DNA from: Xanthomonas arboricola pv. guizotiae | GTDB taxonomy: Bacteria > Pseudomonadota > Gammaproteobacteria > Xanthomonadales > Xanthomonadaceae | Assembly: GCF_002940205.1 (NCBI RefSeq) | Contig: NZ_MDSK01000031.1 | Coordinates: 1-64,000, forward strand | Length of the DNA: 64,000 nt | Direction: 5' to 3' | Shown here: piece after piece, positions 46,578 to 63,152 of the stretch | Layout: every line of letters begins with the position of its first letter | Position numbering within the stretch: position 1 is the stretch's first letter | The notes under the pieces: generated by a model | Told to the model about the DNA's origin: nothing | The model's input: only the letters and a program-made list of their open reading frames with translations | Database searches by the model: none | Program-made: the position numbers and the translations under genes

Positions 46578-46894
46578 TTTGCAGCAGAAAACCGGCGTTT
46601 TCTGCACTCCTGCGCACCAGCACTTGCGCAGGCCGACGGAGTTTATTCGTCGAAATTTATACCAACGCTAAAGATCTACGGGGTGCTGCCGAATAAACCA
46701 AACCCCTTGATACACAACGCTTCCGTATTTCGTCCCGCGGCAGAAAGACAGTAAAAAAACACTGGATTTCGCTAAAGGTTCCCGACGCAACGCCGTTATT
46801 CATCTCAGCAGCGGCAACGGCCAACTTGATGGCCCCCCTGCGGAGGCTCCGGGCAAGTCCCCCTTGCCGGAAAAATCGCTTAGGAGAAATCAAA
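46578..46894 (+). promoter_or_regulatory. flgL-fliC gap with fliC sigma-28 promoter
   Basis: A perfect 8-bp hairpin GCAGAAAA/TTTTCTGC (46584-46591 and 46598-46605) after flgL may end the flg operon. TAAAGATC (46669-46676), 11 bases, GCCGAATA (46688-46695) is a sigma-28 promoter with exact spacing. About 190 bases of leader separate it from the fliC ATG, a long 5' untranslated region with room for post-transcriptional control. Confidence 0.8.
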
Positions 46895-48094
46895 ATGGCA
46901 CAGGTAATCAACACCAACGTAATGTCGCTGAACGCTCAGCGTAACCTCAACACCAACAGCTCCAGCTTGGCGCTGAGCATCCAGCAGCTTTCGTCGGGCA
47001 AGCGCATCACCAGCTTTGCCGTAGACGCGGCCGGCGGCGCAATCGCCGAGCGCTTCACTACCCAGATCCGCGGCCTGGACGTTGCCTCGCGCAACGCCAA
47101 CGACGGCATCTCGCTGTCCCAGACCGCCGAAGGCGCGATGCAGGAAATCGGCAACAACCTGCAGCGTATCCGCGAGCTGTCAGTGCAGTCCGCAAATGCA
47201 ACCAACTCGTCCACCGACCGCGAAGCGCTGAACTCCGAAGTCAAGCAGCTGACCAGCGAAATCGACCGCGTCGCCAATCAGACCAGCTTCAACGGCACCA
47301 AGCTGCTTGACGGCTCCTTCTCTGGCGCGCTGTTCCAGGTCGGCGCCGACGCCGGCCAGACCATCGGCATCAACAGCATCGCCGACGCCAACATCGATAC
47401 GCTGGGCAAGGCCAACTTCGCCGCCGCCGTTTCCGGCGCTGGCGTCACCGGCACCGCCACCGCGTCTGGTTCGGTCAGCGGCATCAGCCTGTCGTTCAAC
47501 GACGCCAGCGGCGCGGCCAAGAGCGTCACCATTGCCGACGTCAAGGTCGCTTCGGGCGACACCGCTGCCGATGTCAACAAGAAGGTGGCTGCGGCGATCA
47601 ACGACAAGCTCGACCAGACCGGCATGTACGCCTCGATCAAGACCGACGGGACGCTGCAGATCGAATCGCTCAAGGCTGGCCAGGACTTCACCTCGCTGTC
47701 GGCTGGTACCTCCAGCGCTGCTGGCATCACCGTCGGCGCCGGCATCACCACCGCTTCGGCCGCTTCGGGCTCCACCGCTTCGACCCTGGGCAGCCTGGAT
47801 ATCTCCACGTTCTCGGGCGCACAGCAAGCACTGGAAATCGTCGACAAGGCGCTGACTACGGTCAACTCCTCGCGCGCCGATATGGGTGCGGTGCAGAACC
47901 GCTTCACCTCCACCATCGCCAACCTGAGCGCAACCTCGGAAAACCTGTCCGCCTCACGTAGCCGGATCGCCGATACCGACTACGCCAAGACCACCGCAGA
48001 ACTGACCCGCACGCAGATCCTGCAGCAGGCCGGTACTGCGATGCTGGCCCAGGCCAAGTCGGTTCCGCAGAACGTGCTGAGCCTGCTGCAGTAA
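46895..48094 (+). CDS. fliC: Flagellin FliC
   Basis: The filament subunit, 399 residues. The N-terminal D0/D1 part [21 protein letters not shown] and the C-terminal part with [29 protein letters not shown] are conserved; the centre (about 175-310) is Ala/Ser/Thr/Gly-rich, with many possible O-glycosylation sites. The flg22-equivalent stretch (about 30-51) carries Val at residue 43, a site where Val/Asp variation in X. campestris is reported to decide recognition by FLS2. GGAG lies 9 bases before the ATG, a strong ribosome-binding site. Driven by sigma-28. Confidence 0.98.

Positions 48095-53832: not shown

Positions 53833-53840
<8 letters not shown>
53457..53840 (+). CDS. vemR: Single-domain response regulator VemR
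   Basis: A 127-residue stand-alone receiver with acidic pocket Asp10/Asp11, acceptor Asp56 in VLMDLAMPEMGG and Lys in FVSKLSY. Its place between rpoN2 and fleQ and its size match VemR of X. campestris, which affects virulence, exopolysaccharide and motility and is reported to work with RpoN2 and FleQ. Its end overlaps the fleQ start by 8 bases. Confidence 0.93.
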
Positions 53841-55317
<1,477 letters not shown>

Positions 55318-55344: not shown

Positions 55345-55360
55345 TGGCATAGCGCTTGCT
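55345..55360 (+). promoter_or_regulatory. Sigma-54 promoter before the glycan cluster
   Basis: TGGCATA-GCGC-TTGCT keeps the GG-N10-GC core and a perfect TTGCT, with two differences in the -24 box. It sits 27 bases after the fleQ stop and 75 bases before the aminotransferase start, so the cluster is likely co-regulated with flagellar genes by RpoN2 and FleQ. Confidence 0.75.
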
Positions 55361-55435
55361 TCAGCAGGATCGCCCCGTCCGCAGCCGTCGGCTGCGGCGG
55401 AATCCCGACATTCACCAGCACCTGCCGAGGCATTG

Positions 55436-56545
55436 ATGCCCATCCCTGTCACCAGTCCGCTGCTGCCGCCGCTGGAAGAATTTCTGCCCTATCTGGAGCA
55501 GATCTGGTCCAGCCGCATTCTCAGCAATGGCGGTGACATGCATCACGCGTTCGAACGCGCGTTGTGCGAATACCTGGGCGTGCCGCACCTGGCCTTGCTC
55601 ACCAACGGCACCACCGCGTTGATCACCGCGCTGCAGGCGCTGCGCATCACCGGGGAGGTCATCACCACGCCCTACTCGTTCGTGGCCACCGCGCATTCGC
55701 TGCTGTGGAAAAGCATCACGCCGGTGTTCGTGGATATCGACCCGCTGACGCTCAACATGGATCCGTCCAAGATCGAGGCGGCCATCACCCCGCAGACCAC
55801 CGCCATCATGCCGGTGCACTGCTACGGCACCGCCTGCGATACCGCTGCCATCACGCGCATCGCCGACATCTACAACCTCAAGGTGATCTACGACGCGGCG
55901 CATGCCTTCGGCGTGCGCGATGAGGGTGGCTCGATCCTGCGTCATGGCGACCTGAGCGTATTGAGCTTCCATGCCACCAAGGTGTTCAACACCTTCGAAG
56001 GTGGCGCCATCGTCTGCCCGGACGAAAGAACCTATCAGCGCATCGGGCATCTGAAGAACTTCGGCTTCGTCGATGAGACCACGGTGGTGGCGCCGGGCAT
56101 CAACGGCAAGATGAACGAAATCAGCGCGGCCTTCGGCCTGCTGCAGCTCAAGCACATCGATCACGCCATCGCCCAGCGCAGCGCCATCGATGCGCAGTAT
56201 CGGCAGCGATTGAGCGATGTTCGCGGCGTGCGCTGCGTGGCGCGGCCCGATCACGCCAGTGCCAACTACGCGTACTTTCCGATCCTGGTGCAGGACGACT
56301 ACCCGCTGTCGCGCGATGCGCTGTACCAAGTGATGCGCGAGCACGGCATCCTGGTGCGGCGGTACTTCTATCCGTTGATCAGCGATTTCCCGATGTATCG
56401 CGCCCTGCCCTCCTCGGCGCCGGCATGGCTGCCGGTCGCGCGCTCAGTGGCCGCACAGGTATTGTGCCTGCCAATCTTTCCTGGCCTGACCCGCGACCAG
56501 GTCGATACCATTGCCGATCTGATCGCCGGCGCACAGGCAACATGA
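55436..56545 (+). CDS. DegT/DnrJ/EryC1-family sugar aminotransferase
   Basis: A 369-residue PLP enzyme of the type that makes amino sugars from nucleotide-linked keto-sugars. Marks are TNGTTALITALQAL (55-70), DAAHAFGV (153-160) and the PLP Lys182 in FHATKVFNTFEGG. The fold resembles VioA/FdtB, which act on dTDP-4-keto or 3-keto-6-deoxyhexose. ATG 55436 gives the usual N-terminus. First gene of the cluster that follows fleQ; its product is likely the sugar part of a flagellin glycan. Confidence 0.9.
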   Translation: MPIPVTSPLLPPLEEFLPYLEQIWSSRILSNGGDMHHAFERALCEYLGVPHLALLTNGTTALITALQALRITGEVITTPYSFVATAHSLLWKSITPVFVDIDPLTLNMDPSKIEAAITPQTTAIMPVHCYGTACDTAAITRIADIYNLKVIYDAAHAFGVRDEGGSILRHGDLSVLSFHATKVFNTFEGGAIVCPDERTYQRIGHLKNFGFVDETTVVAPGINGKMNEISAAFGLLQLKHIDHAIAQRSAIDAQYRQRLSDVRGVRCVARPDHASANYAYFPILVQDDYPLSRDALYQVMREHGILVRRYFYPLISDFPMYRALPSSAPAWLPVARSVAAQVLCLPIFPGLTRDQVDTIADLIAGAQAT

Positions 56546-56609
56546 TCGCAACACGCTGCAGCTGCATTCCAGACTCCCATCTCTTCAACAGGCAACCAGG
56601 CGAGCTCGC

Positions 56610-56834
56610 ATGACCCAGGCAACGTTTATCGAGAACTTCCTCTCCGCCACCGACTTCCAGGAGCCGGTGGAGGTCACGCTGGACACCGTGCTGCTGGAAT
56701 TGCCGGAGTGGGATTCGCTGGCGGCGCTGGGGGTGATCGTCATGTTCGACATGGAGTACGGCAAGACCATTACCGGCGAAGATCTCACCGCTGCCATCAC
56801 CGTCGGCGATCTCTACAAACTGACCGAGGCGTAA
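56610..56834 (+). CDS. Acyl carrier protein of the glycan cluster
   Basis: A 74-residue acidic helical protein with the phosphopantetheine site WDSLAAL (Ser36). It is distinct from the housekeeping AcpP in sequence and is placed directly before a KAS III-like gene, 5 bases away. It probably carries the acyl group built by the next enzymes. Confidence 0.9.
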   Translation: MTQATFIENFLSATDFQEPVEVTLDTVLLELPEWDSLAALGVIVMFDMEYGKTITGEDLTAAITVGDLYKLTEA

Positions 56835-56839
56835 GCACC

Positions 56840-57880
56840 ATGCCGACCTCCACGCTGCACAACGTCCGCTTTGCCGGCATGGCGACATGCGTGCCCAAGC
56901 GGGTGGTGTCCAATCTCACCGACTGCCGGCCGCAGATCCGTTCCGAACGCGAGCGCCTGGTGCGCAACATCGGCATCGAGACGCGCCGTATGGCCGCGGA
57001 GTGGCAGTGTTTTTCCGACCTGGCCTTCGATGCGACCGAAGTGCTGCTCGAGAAGCTGCAGTGGAAGCGCGAGGAGATCGATGCACTGATCGTGGTGACG
57101 CAGTCGCCGGACTATCCAATTCCGGCCACCGCAATCATCCTGCAGGACCGGCTGGGGCTGTCGCATGCCACCGTCGCCTTCGACGTCAACCTGGGCTGCT
57201 CGGCCTACCCGTTCGGCATCAACCTGCTCGGCTCGATGATCGCCGCCGGCGGCGTCAAGAAGGGCCTGCTGCTGGTCGGCGACCGCAGCGCGAACCTGGA
57301 AGACCCGATCTTCTCTGACTCCGGCACCGCCACCGCGCTGGAGTTCAGCGCCGACGCGCCGCCGATGTACTTCGACCTCAACAGCGATGGCAGTGGCTAC
57401 AAGGCGATCATCCTGCCGGTGGGCGGCCAGCGCGAGCCGGTGACCCTGCAGCACCTGATCCCGTTCCGCGAAGAGCCCGATGGTCAGTGGCGACGTGCAA
57501 CTGACCTGATCCTGGACGGCGTGGCAGTGTTGAGCTTCTCCACGCAACGTATCCCACCGGCGGTACAGAAACTTCTCGACTACACCGGCGTATCCAAGGA
57601 TGAGATCGATTACTTCGTGTTCCATCAAGCCAACCGCATGATCAACGAGACCATTCGCAAGAAGCTCGGCCTGCCAGTGGAAAAAGTTCCTTCGACGCTG
57701 CGCGACTTCGGCAACACCAGCGGCGCCTCACTGCCGGTGACCATGACCGCGCGCATCAACAGGGAACTCGAATCCGGGCCCAAGCGTGTGTTGTTGTGCG
57801 GATTCGGTATCGGCTTGTCGTGGGGCACGTGCCTGCTGGATATCGACGGTGCTGTGTTTCCTGATTTGATTGAGTCATGA
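56840..57880 (+). CDS. 3-oxoacyl-ACP synthase III-like protein
   Basis: A 346-residue FabH-like condensing enzyme with the catalytic set Cys120 (NLGCSAYPFG), His262 (VFHQANRM) and Asn292 (FGNTSGAS). These spacings match FabH, so it should be active. Within an amino-sugar cluster such enzymes (for example VioB-type in Pseudomonas syringae) make a short 3-oxoacyl unit for N-acylation. It overlaps the next gene as ATGA. Confidence 0.92.
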   Translation: MPTSTLHNVRFAGMATCVPKRVVSNLTDCRPQIRSERERLVRNIGIETRRMAAEWQCFSDLAFDATEVLLEKLQWKREEIDALIVVTQSPDYPIPATAIILQDRLGLSHATVAFDVNLGCSAYPFGINLLGSMIAAGGVKKGLLLVGDRSANLEDPIFSDSGTATALEFSADAPPMYFDLNSDGSGYKAIILPVGGQREPVTLQHLIPFREEPDGQWRRATDLILDGVAVLSFSTQRIPPAVQKLLDYTGVSKDEIDYFVFHQANRMINETIRKKLGLPVEKVPSTLRDFGNTSGASLPVTMTARINRELESGPKRVLLCGFGIGLSWGTCLLDIDGAVFPDLIES

Positions 57881-58644
57881 CGGCTACACCTGCAGCAACT
57901 ACCGACGCGTTCGGACTGCAACGCAAGACCATTCTGGTGACCGGCGCTTCGTCGGGCATTGGCGCTGCAGTTGCTACGCTGTGCGCGCGTCTGGGCGCGA
58001 GCGTGGTGCTCACCGGGCGCGATACCGCACGGCTGGATGCGGTTGCCGGAGCAATGCAGGGCAGCGGGCATGCAGTGGTGGCCGGCGATCTGACTGAAGA
58101 AGACACCCGCACACGCCTGCTGCATGCCGCCGAGCGGTATCACGGGCTGGTGTCCTGCGCAGGCGTCGCCGCGTTGGTGCCGTTCCGCATGGCCGCAGAA
58201 AAGCATCTGCAACAGATGCTGTCGGTGAACTATCTGGCACCGATCGCGCTGACGCAGCAGTTGCTGGTCAAGCGCCGCCTGAGCGACGGCGCATCGCTGG
58301 TCTATATTTCGGCATTGTCTGCGCGTGCAGCGCCTCAGGCCGCCGCAGGCTATGCAGCGTCAAAGGCTGCGCTGGAAGCTGCGGTCCGCACGTTGGCGCT
58401 CGAACAGGCCAAACACGGCATCCGCGCCAACTGCATCGCGCCAGGCTACGTGGACACGCCAATGCTGAAGAAATTGGGCACTGCAGCAGATATGGACGAC
58501 AAGATCGGGTTGACGCCGCTGGGGCGCATCGACCCGGATGACATCGCCAAAGGCGCGGTGTATCTGCTGTCGGCCGCCAGCCGCTGGATTACCCGCAGCA
58601 CCTTGACCATTGATGGTGGGATTTCCCTGCCTATCCGCCTATGA
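57877..58644 (+). CDS. Short-chain dehydrogenase/reductase, first copy
   Basis: A 255-residue SDR with the Rossmann motif GASSGIG (23-29) and catalytic Ser145, Tyr159 and Lys163 (YAASK). It is probably a 3-oxoacyl-ACP reductase acting on the product of the preceding KAS III, though sugar reduction is possible. Coupled by ATGA overlaps on both sides. The next gene encodes a diverged second copy. Confidence 0.9.
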   Translation: MTATPAATTDAFGLQRKTILVTGASSGIGAAVATLCARLGASVVLTGRDTARLDAVAGAMQGSGHAVVAGDLTEEDTRTRLLHAAERYHGLVSCAGVAALVPFRMAAEKHLQQMLSVNYLAPIALTQQLLVKRRLSDGASLVYISALSARAAPQAAAGYAASKAALEAAVRTLALEQAKHGIRANCIAPGYVDTPMLKKLGTAADMDDKIGLTPLGRIDPDDIAKGAVYLLSAASRWITRSTLTIDGGISLPIRL

Positions 58645-59420
58645 GCATCGACACCACCATGGCAGCAGACGATACCGTTTCGGCGCTGCTGCACGATATG
58701 TATGGCCTGCACGGCAAGACCGTATTGGTCACTGGCGCATCCAAAGGTATCGGCGAAGCGGTCGCGTGCGCATGCGCGGCTGCGGGGGCGCACCTAATTG
58801 TGACCGGGCGCGATGCGGGGCGTCTGCAAACCACGCTTGCATCGCTACAGGGCGATGGCCATCGCCTGTTTGCCGGCGATCTGAGCGATGCAGCTGTCGT
58901 GCAGCAACTCGCTGCAGAATGCGGCCCCGTCGATGGCGTGGTGCACAGCGCCGGCATTCGCGGGCTGTCGCCGATGAAACTGGTCAGCGAGAAATTCCTG
59001 CGCGAGGTCATGGATATCAATTATCTGGCGCCGGTGATGCTGACCCGCCACCTGTTGGCGCGGCAATCGCTGAAGCCTGGGGGTTCGGTGATCTTTCTGT
59101 CATCCATCGCCGCACTGACCGGTACAGTAGGCGTAGGTCCCTACGCTGGCTCCAAGGCCGCGCTGGTCGGCACGCTGCGGCCGTTGGCGCTGGAGCTGGC
59201 GCGTCGCAAGATCCGCGCGAACGCACTCTGCCCCGGCTTGGTCGAAACCTCATTGATCAATGAGGACAAGGCTTGGTTTGAAGAAAGCCGTAAGCGCTAT
59301 CCATTGGGCATCGGACAACCGGACGACGTAGCGATGGCCTGCCTGTATTTCCTTTCCGATGCCAGCAGCAAAGTGACCGGACAGGCTTTCAGCATGGATG
59401 GAGGCGTTGAGTTCGCATGA
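58641..59420 (+). CDS. Short-chain dehydrogenase/reductase, second copy
   Basis: A 259-residue SDR with GASKGIG (32-38), Ser154, Tyr168 and Lys172 (YAGSK). It shares the overall plan and segments such as ITGRDAGRL/LTGRDTARL and SVNYLAPI/DINYLAPV with its neighbour, which suggests an old tandem duplication. The two may reduce different keto groups. ATGA overlaps link it to both neighbours. Confidence 0.9.
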   Translation: MSIDTTMAADDTVSALLHDMYGLHGKTVLVTGASKGIGEAVACACAAAGAHLIVTGRDAGRLQTTLASLQGDGHRLFAGDLSDAAVVQQLAAECGPVDGVVHSAGIRGLSPMKLVSEKFLREVMDINYLAPVMLTRHLLARQSLKPGGSVIFLSSIAALTGTVGVGPYAGSKAALVGTLRPLALELARRKIRANALCPGLVETSLINEDKAWFEESRKRYPLGIGQPDDVAMACLYFLSDASSKVTGQAFSMDGGVEFA

Positions 59421-60076
59421 CGGCCGAAGCACTTGTTCCGCCCTATCACCTGCTAATCGTTGGCGCGGGCGGCTTCGCAAGAGATATCGCATCGCTGGCG
59501 TACCACGAGGATCCGGCGCACGGCGTTGAATGGGATATCAAAGGTTTTCTAGACGACCGCACGCATCTGCAGGGCACGTCGCGCTGGCCGATTGTAGGCG
59601 ACCCTGCTACCTATCAACCGGTGGAAGGCGACATCTTCATCTGCGCAATCGGTGACCCTGCATCGCGGCGACACTACGCCCGCGCGCTTATAGACAAGGG
59701 TGCGGATTTCATCGTATTCCACCCGCCACCGTCGCGCGAAGCGGCTGCCGGCTACATCGGTCGTGGCGGCGTTTTCGATTCACGGGTATCCATCGGCTCT
59801 GGCAGTCGGCTCGGCGAATTCGTCACCGTGCTGTCTACCTCAATCATCGCGCATGAAGTCAACATCGGCGACTACGTGCAGATCGGCAGCTTCGTATTTA
59901 TCGGCGGAGGCGTAGTGATCGGCAACGATGTGACGATCCACCCGCACGCAACCATCATTCCCGGCATTCACATTGGTGACGGCGCCATTGTCGGCGCCGG
60001 CAGCGTTGTCGTGAAAGACGTGCCCTCCAACAGCACGGTGGCCGGCAATCCTGCGCGTGTCATCTTCACCCGGTGA
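59417..60076 (+). CDS. NeuD/PglD-like hexapeptide acyltransferase
   Basis: A 219-residue protein with an N-terminal nucleotide-sugar binding region (LLIVGAGGFARDIASLAY, residues 11-28; GFLDDR) and a left-handed beta-helix of hexapeptide repeats (about 110-215). His at IIPGIHIGDGA and HEVNIGDYV are candidates for the catalytic base. PglD-type enzymes N-acylate UDP-4-amino sugars. Here the donor might be the cluster's own acyl-ACP instead of acetyl-CoA; that is inference. Confidence 0.85.
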   Translation: MTAEALVPPYHLLIVGAGGFARDIASLAYHEDPAHGVEWDIKGFLDDRTHLQGTSRWPIVGDPATYQPVEGDIFICAIGDPASRRHYARALIDKGADFIVFHPPPSREAAAGYIGRGGVFDSRVSIGSGSRLGEFVTVLSTSIIAHEVNIGDYVQIGSFVFIGGGVVIGNDVTIHPHATIIPGIHIGDGAIVGAGSVVVKDVPSNSTVAGNPARVIFTR

Positions 60077-60107
60077 AGCGGACACGCTGCATTTCAGGAC
60101 CCAGGAC

Positions 60108-61247
60108 ATGACTCGCCACGCACTCGACGTCAAGCACTACACCAGCGCGCAGACCTTTGAACTGGAACAGGTGCGATTATTTGGTCGGCTGTGGAACTTT
60201 GTGGGGCTTTCTTCGCTGGTTGCCGAGCGCAATCAGTTCTTCGCACGCCAGGTGGCCGGCGTCCCGGTGCTGGTGCAGCGCACAGACGCCGGCATCCGCG
60301 CGTTCATCAACCAGTGCCCGCATCGGCAGTCGGCGATCCAGATCAACGGCCACGGCAGGCGCCCATTGGTGTGCCCGTACCACGCATGGTCGTTCGGGCC
60401 GGAAGGCGAATTACGTGGCTTGCCCAATCCGGGCCTCTACCAATTCACTGCCGAAGAAAAAGAAGCCATCTGCCTGCGCAAGTTGCATCTAGCGCAGGTC
60501 GGCCAGCTGCTGTTCGTCAACTTCTCCGAGCAACCGCTATCACTGACCGAACAGTTTGCGCCCGAGTATCTGGAGCAGCTGAGTGATGCATCCTCCCACC
60601 TAGATACGCATATCATCTACAGCTGTCATCGCGTGCGTTACAACTGGAAGTTGAACATGGAGAACGTCAAGGACTACAACCACGTTCCTTTTGTTCATCC
60701 CAAGACCTTCGGTCCTTTGATGACTACCACGGACAAGGCTGCCAGCTCGCAGGAAACCGTGCCAGACACTGCGTCGCCGGTAAAACAACTCTTGCAGGTG
60801 CAGACCGTACCGGCACTGAGCGAGCTCAGCTTTCCGGTGAAGGCGCAGATTACGGCCCAAGACAGCTGGTTTCGTGCGCTGTGCGATCGCTATGGCGAAG
60901 ATGAGGCGTACTACAACTGGTTCGTCTATCCCAACGTGAACTTCTGTAGCGTGCGTGGCGACTATTTTCTGCTGCAGCAATACGACCCGGTCTCGCCATC
61001 GGAAACCGACTACCATCTTTGGGTGATGACGGCACAGCGCAAGCACACGCGTACCGACTTCACCGCGCTACTGAGCGATTTGATCCGAGGCGAGCGCACC
61101 GTCATTGCGGAAGACACCGCTCTGTTGGAACGCATGCAGGCCGGTTTTGGGCCGCACTCGGGCGCAATCATGCACGGTGATTACGAGATTCAACTGGTGC
61201 GCCAGCACCGTTGGTATCGCAAAGCAGTGCTGGAGGATGTGCCGTGA
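60108..61247 (+). CDS. Rieske non-heme iron oxygenase, alpha-subunit type
   Basis: A 379-residue protein with a Rieske centre Cys70-x-His72 and Cys89-x2-His92 (CPH and CPYH) and a C-terminal catalytic domain with the mononuclear iron motif DYNHVPFVHPKTF (Asp-x2-His-x4-His). No ferredoxin or reductase gene is adjacent, so electrons would come from elsewhere. Enzymes of this class hydroxylate, desaturate or demethylate. In this cluster it may oxidise the acyl chain or the sugar. ATG 60108 is chosen over an upstream frame start that overlaps the previous gene. Confidence 0.88.
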   Translation: MTRHALDVKHYTSAQTFELEQVRLFGRLWNFVGLSSLVAERNQFFARQVAGVPVLVQRTDAGIRAFINQCPHRQSAIQINGHGRRPLVCPYHAWSFGPEGELRGLPNPGLYQFTAEEKEAICLRKLHLAQVGQLLFVNFSEQPLSLTEQFAPEYLEQLSDASSHLDTHIIYSCHRVRYNWKLNMENVKDYNHVPFVHPKTFGPLMTTTDKAASSQETVPDTASPVKQLLQVQTVPALSELSFPVKAQITAQDSWFRALCDRYGEDEAYYNWFVYPNVNFCSVRGDYFLLQQYDPVSPSETDYHLWVMTAQRKHTRTDFTALLSDLIRGERTVIAEDTALLERMQAGFGPHSGAIMHGDYEIQLVRQHRWYRKAVLEDVP

Positions 61248-61900
61248 CGTCGCTCATCCTGCTAGGCCAGGACCAGGCGCTTTCCCAAGCAGAACACACG
61301 GCGCGCGCTTGTGGACTTGCGCACAGCGTCATCGCTTTGGAATCGGCAGACCGGCATAACTTTGACCTAAGCAATTTTTTTGGGCGCTTTTCGGCAGCCA
61401 GCACTGAGGTCTTCGTTGCGCTGGACGCACGGGCGGTGAACTATGCACGCCACAAGTTGATCGCACAGCTGCGGCTTGCCGGGTATCGATTGGCGAACCT
61501 GGTTTCCCCAGCGGCAATCGTCGACGACGATGTGCGCTTGATGGGCAATGTGCATATCGGACCTGGCTGCAATGTGGCAGCTGGCGTGCGTATTGGCGTT
61601 GGCAGTTGGCTCGATCGCCAAGTCGTGATCGAACAAGATGTATGCCTTGGCACCTGTGTCACATTGCAGGCACGTGTTTTGATTGGGAACGGCGTGCAAA
61701 TCGGCCAAGGCAGTACGCTCGGTAGTGCCAGCATCGCGACTGCCAACACCAGGGTTGGCAGGCATTGCGAATGGCTTTTACCGACCGTGCTGCCGAGCAA
61801 TCTATCGGACAGATCTTTCCATGACGCACTGATGCCTGAAGGTGCACGCATCCTGCGAGCGACCGAACCATCCAAGCAAATCCAAATGCAAATTTGCTGA
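61244..61900 (+). CDS. Second NeuD/PglD-like hexapeptide acyltransferase
   Basis: A 218-residue protein that starts at GTG 61244, overlapping the Rieske stop as GTGA. An N-terminal part (SLILLGQDQALSQAEHTARACG) lacks the clear GxGGF loop of PglD, and a hexapeptide-repeat helix follows (about 90-190). It is related in plan to the acyltransferase two genes upstream but clearly diverged. The putative acceptor-binding domain is altered, so the substrate may differ. Base composition is less GC-rich than upstream. Confidence 0.75.
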   Translation: MTSLILLGQDQALSQAEHTARACGLAHSVIALESADRHNFDLSNFFGRFSAASTEVFVALDARAVNYARHKLIAQLRLAGYRLANLVSPAAIVDDDVRLMGNVHIGPGCNVAAGVRIGVGSWLDRQVVIEQDVCLGTCVTLQARVLIGNGVQIGQGSTLGSASIATANTRVGRHCEWLLPTVLPSNLSDRSFHDALMPEGARILRATEPSKQIQMQIC

Positions 61901-61922
61901 CCCGAATTATAGAGAGCACGTG

Positions 61923-63152
61923 ATGTCACTAGATGAGCACCTCCGAATCACGACCAATCCCAACGGAGACGAGCGTGTCCTGCGCGAATGCCTTGCCCGT
62001 TACGCGGATGCATTCGCGGGTGAGCCGGACTTCTGCGTGCCACCCCAGGCCCGTCGATTACTCGATCAGGAAGGCGCGACCCTGCAGGTAGTGCTGCTCG
62101 GCAGCAAGCTCTTCGGCAGCGTGTTCGTACGAGAAGCCGCAGCTCGTGTAGAGATTATTGGCGTGGTCGACGACTACAAGGTCGGCAGTGGGCAAACATT
62201 TCATGGTATTCCCTTTATCAGCTCCGCCACCTTGATCCAATGGGCAAACTCGCGCCCGATTGTCTGTGTAAACACGTGTCGGTTCGACTACTCGCGTCGC
62301 TACTTCAAACACCTGGCACTCACCCACCGGATTCCGTTACTCAACTACGAGCAGGCCATCCGCTGGCTTGGCATTACTGCGTGCCTTGATCATCGTGTCG
62401 AAGATTGGGGTGGCTACATCGTGCGTAACCTGCCGCGCTTCGATGCATTGGCTGCCCGCCTCGGCGACCCTTATTCGCGCTTTACTTTGTTTAGCGTGCT
62501 ATTGGCGCATTTATCCTGCGATCCAGAGTGGATCCTTCATGCAGCTAAGCCCTACTCGAGCTTGTATTTTCGCTCGGGCCTTTTCGCGCCGGGCTTGAAC
62601 GAATGCTTCGCCGATTGCGGGGCATCTATCGCCGAGTCGAGCCGCGCCTTTCTCGACAGCGTGGATGAAAGCTTTGAAAAGATTTGGATGATTGAGCCAG
62701 ACCACTTCAACGGCGAGACGCTAAAGGAATTTATTCGCGGCCGTGGTCTCCAGCCTGCCAGGGAAGGCCAGATAGAGTTGATCGCCTGTGCATTGGGAGA
62801 GGCTGACGGTGAGCTACCATTTTTGCATGAAGGTGGACACGGTGGCCAACTACTTCCGATGCCATCTGGGCAGTCTCACTGCCACAATGTGGCCGTGCGC
62901 CGGCTGGATGACCTGCTTGACCGCACTCCTACGTTGATCAAGATGGACATCGAAGGAGCCGAACTAGCTGCGTTACGTGGTGCCAGTGCACACATTGTCG
63001 CGGGACGTCCGACGCTTGCGATCTCAGCCTATCACCGTTCTTCGGACCTGCTCGAATTGGTAGACGCAGTGGAGAATATGCGTGATGACTATCGTATTGG
63101 TTTGCGTCACAACACCGAAGACCGCTGGGATACCTGCCTTTATTTTTACTGA
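61923..63152 (+). CDS. FkbM-type methyltransferase with N-terminal extra domain
   Basis: A 409-residue protein in two parts. Residues about 40-150 look like a nucleotide-binding domain (QVVLLGSKLFGSVF, then IIGVVDDYKVGSG), similar in plan to the first part of PglD-like proteins. Residues about 215-409 match FkbM methyltransferases (FADCGASIAESSRAF, IWMIEPDHFNGETL, LIKMDIEGAELAALRGA). FkbM enzymes O-methylate sugars, and flagellin glycans are often methylated. Start ATG 61923 is 23 bases after the previous stop. Confidence 0.82.
   Translation: MSLDEHLRITTNPNGDERVLRECLARYADAFAGEPDFCVPPQARRLLDQEGATLQVVLLGSKLFGSVFVREAAARVEIIGVVDDYKVGSGQTFHGIPFISSATLIQWANSRPIVCVNTCRFDYSRRYFKHLALTHRIPLLNYEQAIRWLGITACLDHRVEDWGGYIVRNLPRFDALAARLGDPYSRFTLFSVLLAHLSCDPEWILHAAKPYSSLYFRSGLFAPGLNECFADCGASIAESSRAFLDSVDESFEKIWMIEPDHFNGETLKEFIRGRGLQPAREGQIELIACALGEADGELPFLHEGGHGGQLLPMPSGQSHCHNVAVRRLDDLLDRTPTLIKMDIEGAELAALRGASAHIVAGRPTLAISAYHRSSDLLELVDAVENMRDDYRIGLRHNTEDRWDTCLYFY

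What the first reader, a model, noticed from the sequence alone, without database searches (positions are those of the whole stretch)
55345..63152. Flagellin-glycan cluster that seems to build its own oxidised acyl group on an amino sugar
Directly after fleQ lie a sugar aminotransferase, a private ACP, a KAS III with an intact Cys120/His262/Asn292 set, two SDRs, two PglD-like acyltransferases, a Rieske oxygenase and an FkbM methyltransferase, most joined by ATGA or GTGA overlaps. Together they read as a pathway: make a 3-oxoacyl-ACP, reduce it to 3-hydroxyacyl, transfer it to a 4- or 3-amino-6-deoxy sugar, oxidise and O-methylate it. A viosamine-type modification is known in P. syringae flagellin, and a glycosylation island is known at this site in Xanthomonas. 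The Rieske step and the doubled SDR and acyltransferase genes imply a more complex group than the known one.
Basis: partly seen in the sequence, partly recalled or inferred. Interest (0 to 1): 0.85.

Follow-up and report, generated by a model that had tools for sequence, protein, structure and literature searches.

The report
Oxygenase cassette in flagellin sugar island
This Xanthomonas flagellar gene cluster very probably makes an acylated amino sugar for decorating flagellin, and it carries an extra oxygenase plus a degenerate acyltransferase-like partner that together look like a swappable add-on changing the final sugar.

Summary
The genes are real and in the order described. They form a flagellin-glycosylation island between fleQ and a VioT-like glycosyltransferase/fliE, the site of the published gigX1-10 island of X. 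oryzae. Aminotransferase-ACP-KASIII-SDR-NeuD match the P. syringae viosamine pathway; the closest solved relatives (DesI, VioB) point to a 4-amino sugar. Added here are a Rieske oxygenase and a second PglD-like protein (Hex). (1) Hex lacks the NeuD family's GNPA motif (0 of 42, NeuD 42 of 42) and has His at the catalytic column in only 3 of 42 (NeuD 42 of 42), though 27 of 42 have some His within four columns; it is probably not an ordinary acyltransferase. (2) Rieske and Hex are adjacent at 50 of 53 places, come in two matched types, and are exchanged as one block with breakpoints at gene borders. (3) In 35 genus genomes, Rieske and KASIII are present together in 31 and missing together in 4. 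The two SDRs are old, intact paralogues, not a recent doubling. Best reading: dTDP-N-acyl-viosamine is hydroxylated by the Rieske enzyme with Hex as partner. Oxidation site, product and the role of Hex are inferred.

The parts
46892..48094 (+). fliC flagellin, the presumed acceptor (context)
   Evidence: Flagellin_N 145.6 bits, Flagellin_C 97.4 bits
53833..55317 (+). fleQ, left border of the island (context)
55345..55360 (+). sigma-54-type promoter match TGGCATAGCGCTTGCT
   Evidence: two mismatches to a consensus recalled from memory; core form at 33 of 39 junctions against 33 of 4000 control stretches
55436..56545 (+). DegT/DnrJ aminotransferase, VioA/DesI-like
   Evidence: PF01041; best PDB match 2po3, 224 bits (printed there as '4-dehydrase', the name DesI is recalled; DesI family model 279 bits, below its cut-off of 650)
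56610..56834 (+). dedicated acyl carrier protein, serine 36
   Evidence: no Pfam hit; weak AcpM/ACP hits; DSL/DSM motif in 47 of 47 ORFs scored, own included
56840..57880 (+). 3-oxoacyl-ACP synthase III, C120/H262/N292
   Evidence: PF08541; residues
57877..58644 (+). SDR reductase 1
   Evidence: PF13561; Tyr and Lys in 33 of 33 first-of-two SDRs; own clade
58641..59420 (+). SDR reductase 2 (the clade that includes the single SDRs)
   Evidence: PF13561; Tyr and Lys in 33 of 33 second-of-two SDRs
59417..60076 (+). NeuD/VioB-type N-acyltransferase with conserved His 146
   Evidence: TIGR03570 over cut-off; VioB 7txp first PDB hit, 76 bits; His 42 of 42
60108..61247 (+). Rieske non-haem iron oxygenase, type 1
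   Evidence: PF00355 and PF00848; metal-site residues conserved; model matches CntA best
61244..61900 (+). Hex: PglD-like left-handed beta-helix protein without the NeuD acyltransferase signature; Rieske partner
61923..63152 (+). FkbM methyltransferase with an N-terminal extension (variable module)
   Evidence: PF05050, TIGR01444
63358..64000 (+). WavE-like gene, runs off the window (424 aa in L003)
   Evidence: PF07507 23.4 bits, below its cut-off of 27

Best explanation
This is a flagellin-glycosylation island of the viosamine type with an added oxidation cassette. Inferred by homology: RmlB-made dTDP-4-keto-6-deoxyglucose is aminated at C4 by the aminotransferase to dTDP-viosamine; the ACP and KASIII make a short 3-oxoacyl-ACP; an SDR reduces it; the NeuD protein puts the 3-hydroxyacyl group on N4. 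Inferred here: the Rieske oxygenase then hydroxylates the acylated nucleotide sugar, most likely on the N-acyl chain. Hex, which keeps a sugar-nucleotide-binding-like N-terminal domain but not the acyl-transfer signature, works with it, probably by holding the substrate. FkbM methylates, and the VioT-like glycosyltransferase caps the flagellin glycan. Reductase and ferredoxin for the Rieske enzyme come from elsewhere in the genome.
For: Flagellar position. The acyl-sugar genes parallel vioA/acp/vioS/vioR/vioB of P. syringae, where loss of vioR removes the modified viosamine and loss of vioM its methyl group (PMC3927599). DesI and VioB are the first PDB hits. RmlB is over its cut-off in the own genome. 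Rieske metal-site residues: bridging Asp and mononuclear-iron set in 46 of 46 distinct sequences, cluster ligands in 45 of 46, the one gap being a row cut short by my trimming. The model's best folds are CntA and quaternary-amine/stachydrine demethylases, which oxidise aliphatic carbon. Rieske and Hex: adjacent at 50 of 53 places; types matched at the 48 scored by BLAST; pairwise identities correlate at 0.87 against 0.57 for Rieske-NeuD, 0.01 for Rieske-KASIII and 0.08 for Rieske-aminotransferase. DNA identity to three strains stops just before the Rieske gene, and to another resumes at its start codon (60108) and runs through most of Hex. KASIII and Rieske present together in 31, absent together in 4, of 35 genus genomes.
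Against: No glycan structure from a strain with this island was found (search listing only). By sequence alone the first PDB hits of the Rieske protein are ring-hydroxylating-type oxygenases (9o71 and 7yls, about 91 and 90 bits) ahead of CntA (80 bits), and the first NCBIfam hits are anthranilate dioxygenase and glycine betaine monooxygenase, both far below their cut-offs. The type-1 Rieske-Hex pair goes with two different upstream acyl modules, which could mean that it acts on the constant sugar. No reductase was found in the island. The Rieske-Hex correlation is partly linkage, since the genes are neighbours. One relative (L019) has a Rieske gene without Hex. 27 of 42 Hex proteins have a His within four columns of the NeuD catalytic column, so the absence of a usable His is not certain for all of them.
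Confidence: 0.6

Rival explanations
1. The Rieske enzyme oxidises the sugar itself (ring carbon or C6), not the N-acyl group; the acyl chain stays as in P. syringae.
For: Type-1 Rieske-Hex occurs with two different SDR-NeuD modules, so its target may be the constant part of the molecule.
Against: None of the 35 genus genomes has the Rieske gene without KASIII, which suggests that the acyl group is needed. The two acyl modules could also make the same or similar acyl groups.
Confidence: 0.2
2. Hex is an active acyltransferase with unusual catalysis that acylates the hydroxyl made by the Rieske enzyme.
For: The fold is that of PglD/LpxD acyltransferases (perosamine N-acetyltransferase 80 bits). 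QdtC is recalled to work without a catalytic base. 27 of 42 Hex proteins have a His near, though not at, the catalytic column. Co-exchange with Rieske fits an enzyme that acts on the Rieske product.
Against: No His at the column in 39 of 42 and no GNPA motif in 42 of 42; TIGR03570 scores far below its cut-off. The window's own Hex has no His within four columns.
Confidence: 0.33
3. A plain P. syringae-type viosamine island; Rieske and Hex are decayed or serve another pathway.
For: P. syringae makes its modified viosamine with seven genes and no Rieske (PMC3927599).
Against: Catalytic residues kept across 46 sequences; strict co-occurrence with KASIII; GTGA overlap with Hex.
Confidence: 0.08
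4. The amino sugar is 3-amino-3,6-dideoxy (Qui3N or Fuc3N) rather than viosamine.
For: Same aminotransferase superfamily; QdtB and QdtC are among the hits.
Against: DesI outscores QdtB by 86 bits; VioB is ahead of QdtC (76 against 63 bits); no 3,4-ketoisomerase family was hit by the ten window proteins scanned (the rest of the genome was not searched for one).
Confidence: 0.08

Closest known systems
P. syringae pv. tabaci viosamine island (vioA, vioM, vioT, vioS, vioB, vioR, acp)
   Same: Aminotransferase, ACP, KASIII, 3-oxoacyl-ACP reductase, VioB acyltransferase, a methyltransferase, a 1173-aa glycosyltransferase; flagellin cap (PMC3927599)
   Different: No Rieske and no Hex; one SDR; different methyltransferase; different genome site. 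P. californiensis (L015) has Rieske-Hex in an island beside a glutamine synthetase and an MFS gene, as at the P. syringae site.
X. oryzae gigX1-10 flagellin glycosylation island (Yu et al. 2018; primary paper not held)
   Same: Downstream of rpoN2-fleQ control (PMC8657755 passages). PMC3826837 Table 5 records lower-identity orthologues of the Rieske, Hex, acetyltransferase and SDR genes, and orthologues of KASIII, ACP and aminotransferase, in Xoo PXO99A.
   Different: That strain probably carries the type-2 Rieske allele (inference from the '1*' entries); the role of each gene could not be read here
P. aeruginosa PAK orfA-orfN island
   Same: orfA/B/C/D/E/G/N correspond to vioA/acp/vioS/vioR/vioB/vioM/vioT, at 12-52% identity (PMC3927599 Table 1)
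   Different: Presence of a Rieske gene there could not be checked
CMP-Neu5Ac hydroxylase (CMAH), recalled
   Same: Works like: a Rieske-type enzyme that hydroxylates the N-acyl group of an activated amino sugar
   Different: Different Rieske architecture and host; resemblance by recall only, no sequence test made
CntA and stachydrine/quaternary-amine Rieske oxygenases
   Same: Nearest solved folds (Foldseek E about 1e-23, 18-22% identity)
   Different: Their substrates are quaternary or tertiary amines; nothing suggests that here. By sequence other ring-hydroxylating-type oxygenases score higher

Membership tests
Viosamine-type flagellin glycosylation island | VioA-type 4-aminotransferase | tested here: met
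   2po3 (DesI) first PDB hit; VioA itself was not at hand
Viosamine-type flagellin glycosylation island | ACP, KASIII, SDR and VioB-type acyltransferase with intact catalytic residues | tested here: met
   (window proteins)
Viosamine-type flagellin glycosylation island | VioT-like long glycosyltransferase at the end | tested here: met
   1183-aa protein in L017 with two GT2 stretches; own copy on contig C13, 87% identical to it; no direct comparison with VioT
Viosamine-type flagellin glycosylation island | Flagellin carries N-(3-hydroxybutyryl)-2-O-methyl-viosamine | not testable with these tools
   needs mass spectrometry or NMR
Rieske non-haem iron oxygenase | CxH...CxxH cluster ligands, bridging Asp, 2-His-1-carboxylate | tested here: met
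   C70 H72 C89 H92 in 45 of 46 (one row gapped by trimming); D189 H192 H197 D336 in 46 of 46
NeuD/PglD/VioB acyltransferase (for the protein at 61244-61900) | TIGR03570 score over cut-off | tested here: not met
   71.3 bits, cut-off 160.8
NeuD/PglD/VioB acyltransferase (for the protein at 61244-61900) | catalytic His and GNPA motif | tested here: not met
   His at the column in 3 of 42 (27 of 42 have one within four columns, the window's own does not), GNPA in 0 of 42; NeuD 42 of 42 for both
X. oryzae gigX island | same ten genes at the same site | tested here: inconclusive
   site and most genes agree with PMC3826837 Table 5; primary paper not held

The most novel reading that the evidence does not exclude
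Rieske and Hex form a two-part, exchangeable tailoring cassette: an oxygenase that hydroxylates the N-acyl group of a nucleotide-bound amino sugar, with a former acyltransferase, now without its catalytic signature, serving as substrate-holding subunit. Strains swap type 1 for type 2, or carry both in tandem (L017), and so change the outermost group of their flagellin glycan.
Probability: 0.27. Interest if true: 0.72.

Novelty: new variant of a known kind. Interest (0 to 1): 0.5.

Why it matters
If true, it is a bacterial route to oxidised N-acyl amino sugars on flagellin that uses a Rieske enzyme, and an acyltransferase fold reused as an oxygenase partner. It would also explain how xanthomonads vary the end of the flagellin glycan by swapping one two-gene block while the first part of the pathway stays constant. 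The prediction is sharp: loss of Rieske and loss of Hex should give the same mass shift.

Tried and rejected
Second, ordinary acyltransferase step by Hex: doubtful after the residue counts. Recent doubling of the SDRs: rejected, since first and second SDRs form two separate clades (support 0.993 and 0.983, midpoint-rooted; eight loci that repeat a genome or are partial were left out). A reductase in the island: none in the ten window proteins; six Fer2 matches in the genome, on contigs other than C31 and C13. A wide spread: Rieske (E up to 1e-35) in 1 of 369 sampled genomes of the class, the own one; Hex (E up to 1e-10) in 3 of 369, two of them weak matches of 28-29% identity. Structure of Hex: model pLDDT 75 and Foldseek matches weak (best E 0.096), so no ligand-site claim is made from it. 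Sigma-70 promoter scan: none found. PHROGs for Hex: three families, all of unknown function. My first YxxxK pattern missed 23 of 76 SDRs because it was too narrow; one search corrected it by alignment column for 73 SDRs (the three of L020 were not counted). KASIII patterns failed to match in 14 of 47 relatives for one residue each and were not refined, so intactness is claimed for the window protein only.

Literature searches for a Rieske enzyme in flagellin glycosylation: searches gave no paper; one search gave seven, of which the one opened (PMC3826837) lists the gene in a table; the other six were seen only in the listing. Papers seen: PMC3927599 parts 1-2 of 5 of the text; passages only of PMC3826837 (including Table 5 rows), PMC8657755, PMC7970052, PMC6859632, PMC4875605 and PMC3958885.
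Full report
Place and content. The window is the first 64000 bases of a 65039-base contig. It is a Xanthomonas: by its Rieske protein the nearest named relatives are X. hortorum, X. euvesicatoria and X. cannabis (90, 89, 89%). fliC lies at 46892-48094 and fleQ at 53833-55317. A sigma-54-type promoter match at 55345-55360 precedes them; the core form is found at 33 of 39 fleQ-aminotransferase junctions (5 of the 39 repeat a genome already counted) against 33 of 4000 random 160-base stretches. It fits the published control of the X. oryzae genes gigX1-10 by RpoN2/FleQ (PMC8657755, passage).

Rest of the island. Beyond the window come a WavE-like gene, a kdsB-like gene cut by the contig end, and then, on another contig of the same genome (C13), the remainder of kdsB, an FkbM gene, the VioT-like glycosyltransferase (87% identical to that of L017) and fliE. 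Of 39 loci with fleQ, 36 reach the glycosyltransferase and 27 fliE within the stretch held (five of the 39 repeat a genome).

Acyl-sugar steps. The aminotransferase matches DesI (2po3, 224 bits) and perosamine synthetase (167) better than QdtB (138 bits), and the first acyltransferase has VioB as its first PDB hit. The name DesI and the products are recalled. The genome has an RmlB over the curated cut-off. KASIII C120/H262/N292 and ACP serine 36 are intact, and the SDRs keep Tyr and Lys (66 of 66 paired, 7 of 7 single; the three of L020 were not counted). In P. syringae the same gene set makes N-(3-hydroxybutyryl)-2-O-methyl-viosamine: loss of vioR removes the sugar and loss of vioM removes the methyl group (PMC3927599). 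I therefore put the amino group at C4.

Two SDRs. A midpoint-rooted tree of 76 SDRs puts the first members of pairs in one clade (34 sequences, support 0.993) and the second members with all seven single SDRs in the other (42 sequences, support 0.983). They are old paralogues with probably different tasks. Single-SDR loci also carry the type-1 Rieske-Hex pair, so the first SDR is not needed for the Rieske step.

Rieske. Cluster ligands are present in 45 of 46 distinct sequences (one row was cut short by my trimming) and the mononuclear-iron set with the bridging Asp in 46 of 46. The model (pLDDT 85.8) matches CntA and quaternary-amine or stachydrine demethylases best, which suits oxidation of an aliphatic carbon. 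Against this, the first PDB hits by sequence are ring-hydroxylating-type oxygenases (about 91 and 90 bits) ahead of CntA (80 bits). Neither names the substrate.

Hex. The protein after the Rieske gene has the PglD/LpxD fold by profile, but TIGR03570 scores 71 bits against a cut-off of 161. At the column of the NeuD catalytic His, 42 of 42 NeuD proteins have His and 3 of 42 Hex proteins do; 27 of 42 Hex proteins, mostly of type 2, have some His within four columns, the window's own does not; GNPA occurs in 42 of 42 and 0 of 42. Residues invariant in the 24 Hex proteins aligned include D61, N66 and R69 in the N-terminal domain and G172 and E176 further on. That the N-terminal domain still binds a sugar nucleotide is an inference from the alignment. 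Lack of the His does not prove inactivity: QdtC is recalled to work without a base.

Pairing. Of 53 Rieske places examined, 48 have Hex directly downstream by BLAST and two more, in Bordetella hinzii, by profile. The three exceptions are L025 (contig end), the middle Rieske gene of L020, which is followed by another Rieske gene, and L019. The 53 include six rows from five genomes fetched twice (L047-L051); without them it is 44 of 47. Types, assigned by the best-scoring seed, match between Rieske and Hex at the 48 BLAST-scored places; for L018 and L021 the assignment is loose (52 and 48% identity of Rieske, and L018 sits beside the type-2 clade in the tree). L017 has both pairs in tandem.

Modular exchange. 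Over 31 genus loci the pairwise identities of Rieske and Hex correlate at 0.87, SDR and NeuD at 0.75, Rieske and NeuD at 0.57, Rieske and KASIII at 0.01 (Hex was held for 30). Linkage between neighbours contributes. Eight loci were compared with the own island by DNA. To L034, L031 and L028 identity runs at 84-89% to 60024-60065 and then stops before the Rieske gene. To L027 it stops at 57880, the KASIII stop, and resumes at 60108, the Rieske start codon, to 61854. To L022 and L030 the continuous match stops at 57880, with short matches after it and, for L022, a further long one from 63357. To L050 and L049, which share the type-1 pair, it runs on to 63148-63152. From the 31 loci fall into four combinations: SDR1/2-NeuD1 with type 1 (5, one of which also has type 2), SDR1/2-NeuD1 with type 2 (4), single SDR with type 1 (3), another SDR pair with type 2 (19). 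So Rieske-Hex is exchanged independently of the acyl module. GC content falls from 0.62-0.65 over 55-59 kb to 0.56-0.58 from 60 kb on, in line with exchange.

Distribution. KASIII (E up to 1e-60) and Rieske (E up to 1e-20) are each found in 31 of the 35 genus genomes held, the same 31; the window-type Rieske in 8, the other type in 24, one genome having both. The four without them keep fleQ and the glycosyltransferase; one has only about 230 bases between the two, and two carry an aminotransferase-like gene (65 and 54% identical) with other genes. In the class sample the Rieske family is rare (1 of 369, the own genome), but it occurs in islands of Pseudomonas, Massilia, Oxalicibacterium, Pseudogulbenkiania and Bordetella. 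In Pseudomonas sp. 8AS the island lies between flgI-J-K-L and fliC, independent evidence for flagellin as target. In P. californiensis it lies beside a glutamine synthetase and an MFS gene, as the viosamine island of P. syringae does.

What is in print. PMC3826837 Table 5 lists the cluster in X. campestris pv. vesicatoria 85-10 (XCV2000-2014) with XCV2007 'Rieske 2Fe-2S family protein' and XCV2006 'hypothetical protein' (Hex by position); 12 of 15 other genomes, Xoo PXO99A included, have an orthologue or a lower-identity one of the Rieske gene. The ten-gene gigX island is reported to determine flagellin glycosylation in X. oryzae (PMC6859632 passage); the primary paper is not held. In the library searched I found no paper on the function of the Rieske or Hex gene.

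Verdict. The island is a known kind of system; what is new here, as far as these searches go, is the Rieske-Hex cassette, the missing catalytic signature of Hex, and the block-wise exchange. Shown: gene content, residues, pairing, exchange pattern, flagellar context. Inferred: substrate, oxidation site, role of Hex, order of steps.

Noticed in passing
L003 1358-2948; own contig C31 64676 to end; L070: A WavE-like, kdsB-like, FkbM set forms another variable module; the genome has a separate kdsB over the cut-off on C5. It hints at a second, ulosonic-acid-like sugar on flagellin in some strains.
   Followed up: partly
end of C31 (L003) and end of C13 (L070): In this genome the kdsB-like gene is cut at both contig ends beside similar inverted-repeat-like sequence, and the next FkbM frame is split by about 0.7 kb, both looking like insertion elements.
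   Followed up: no
L020 4067-13965: Bordetella hinzii has three divergent Rieske genes (32-33% identity) among KASIII, SDR, NeuD and Hex-like genes.
   Followed up: partly
L017 10001-13559: Xanthomonas sp. 3793 carries both Rieske-Hex types in tandem.
   Followed up: yes
L069 1560-1792: A genus member with almost no island: fleQ is followed after about 230 bases by the glycosyltransferase and then fliE.
   Followed up: partly
L043 9671-11047: A polysaccharide pyruvyl transferase stands next to the FkbM gene in L043; ORFs of the same length occur there in L044 and L045.
   Followed up: no
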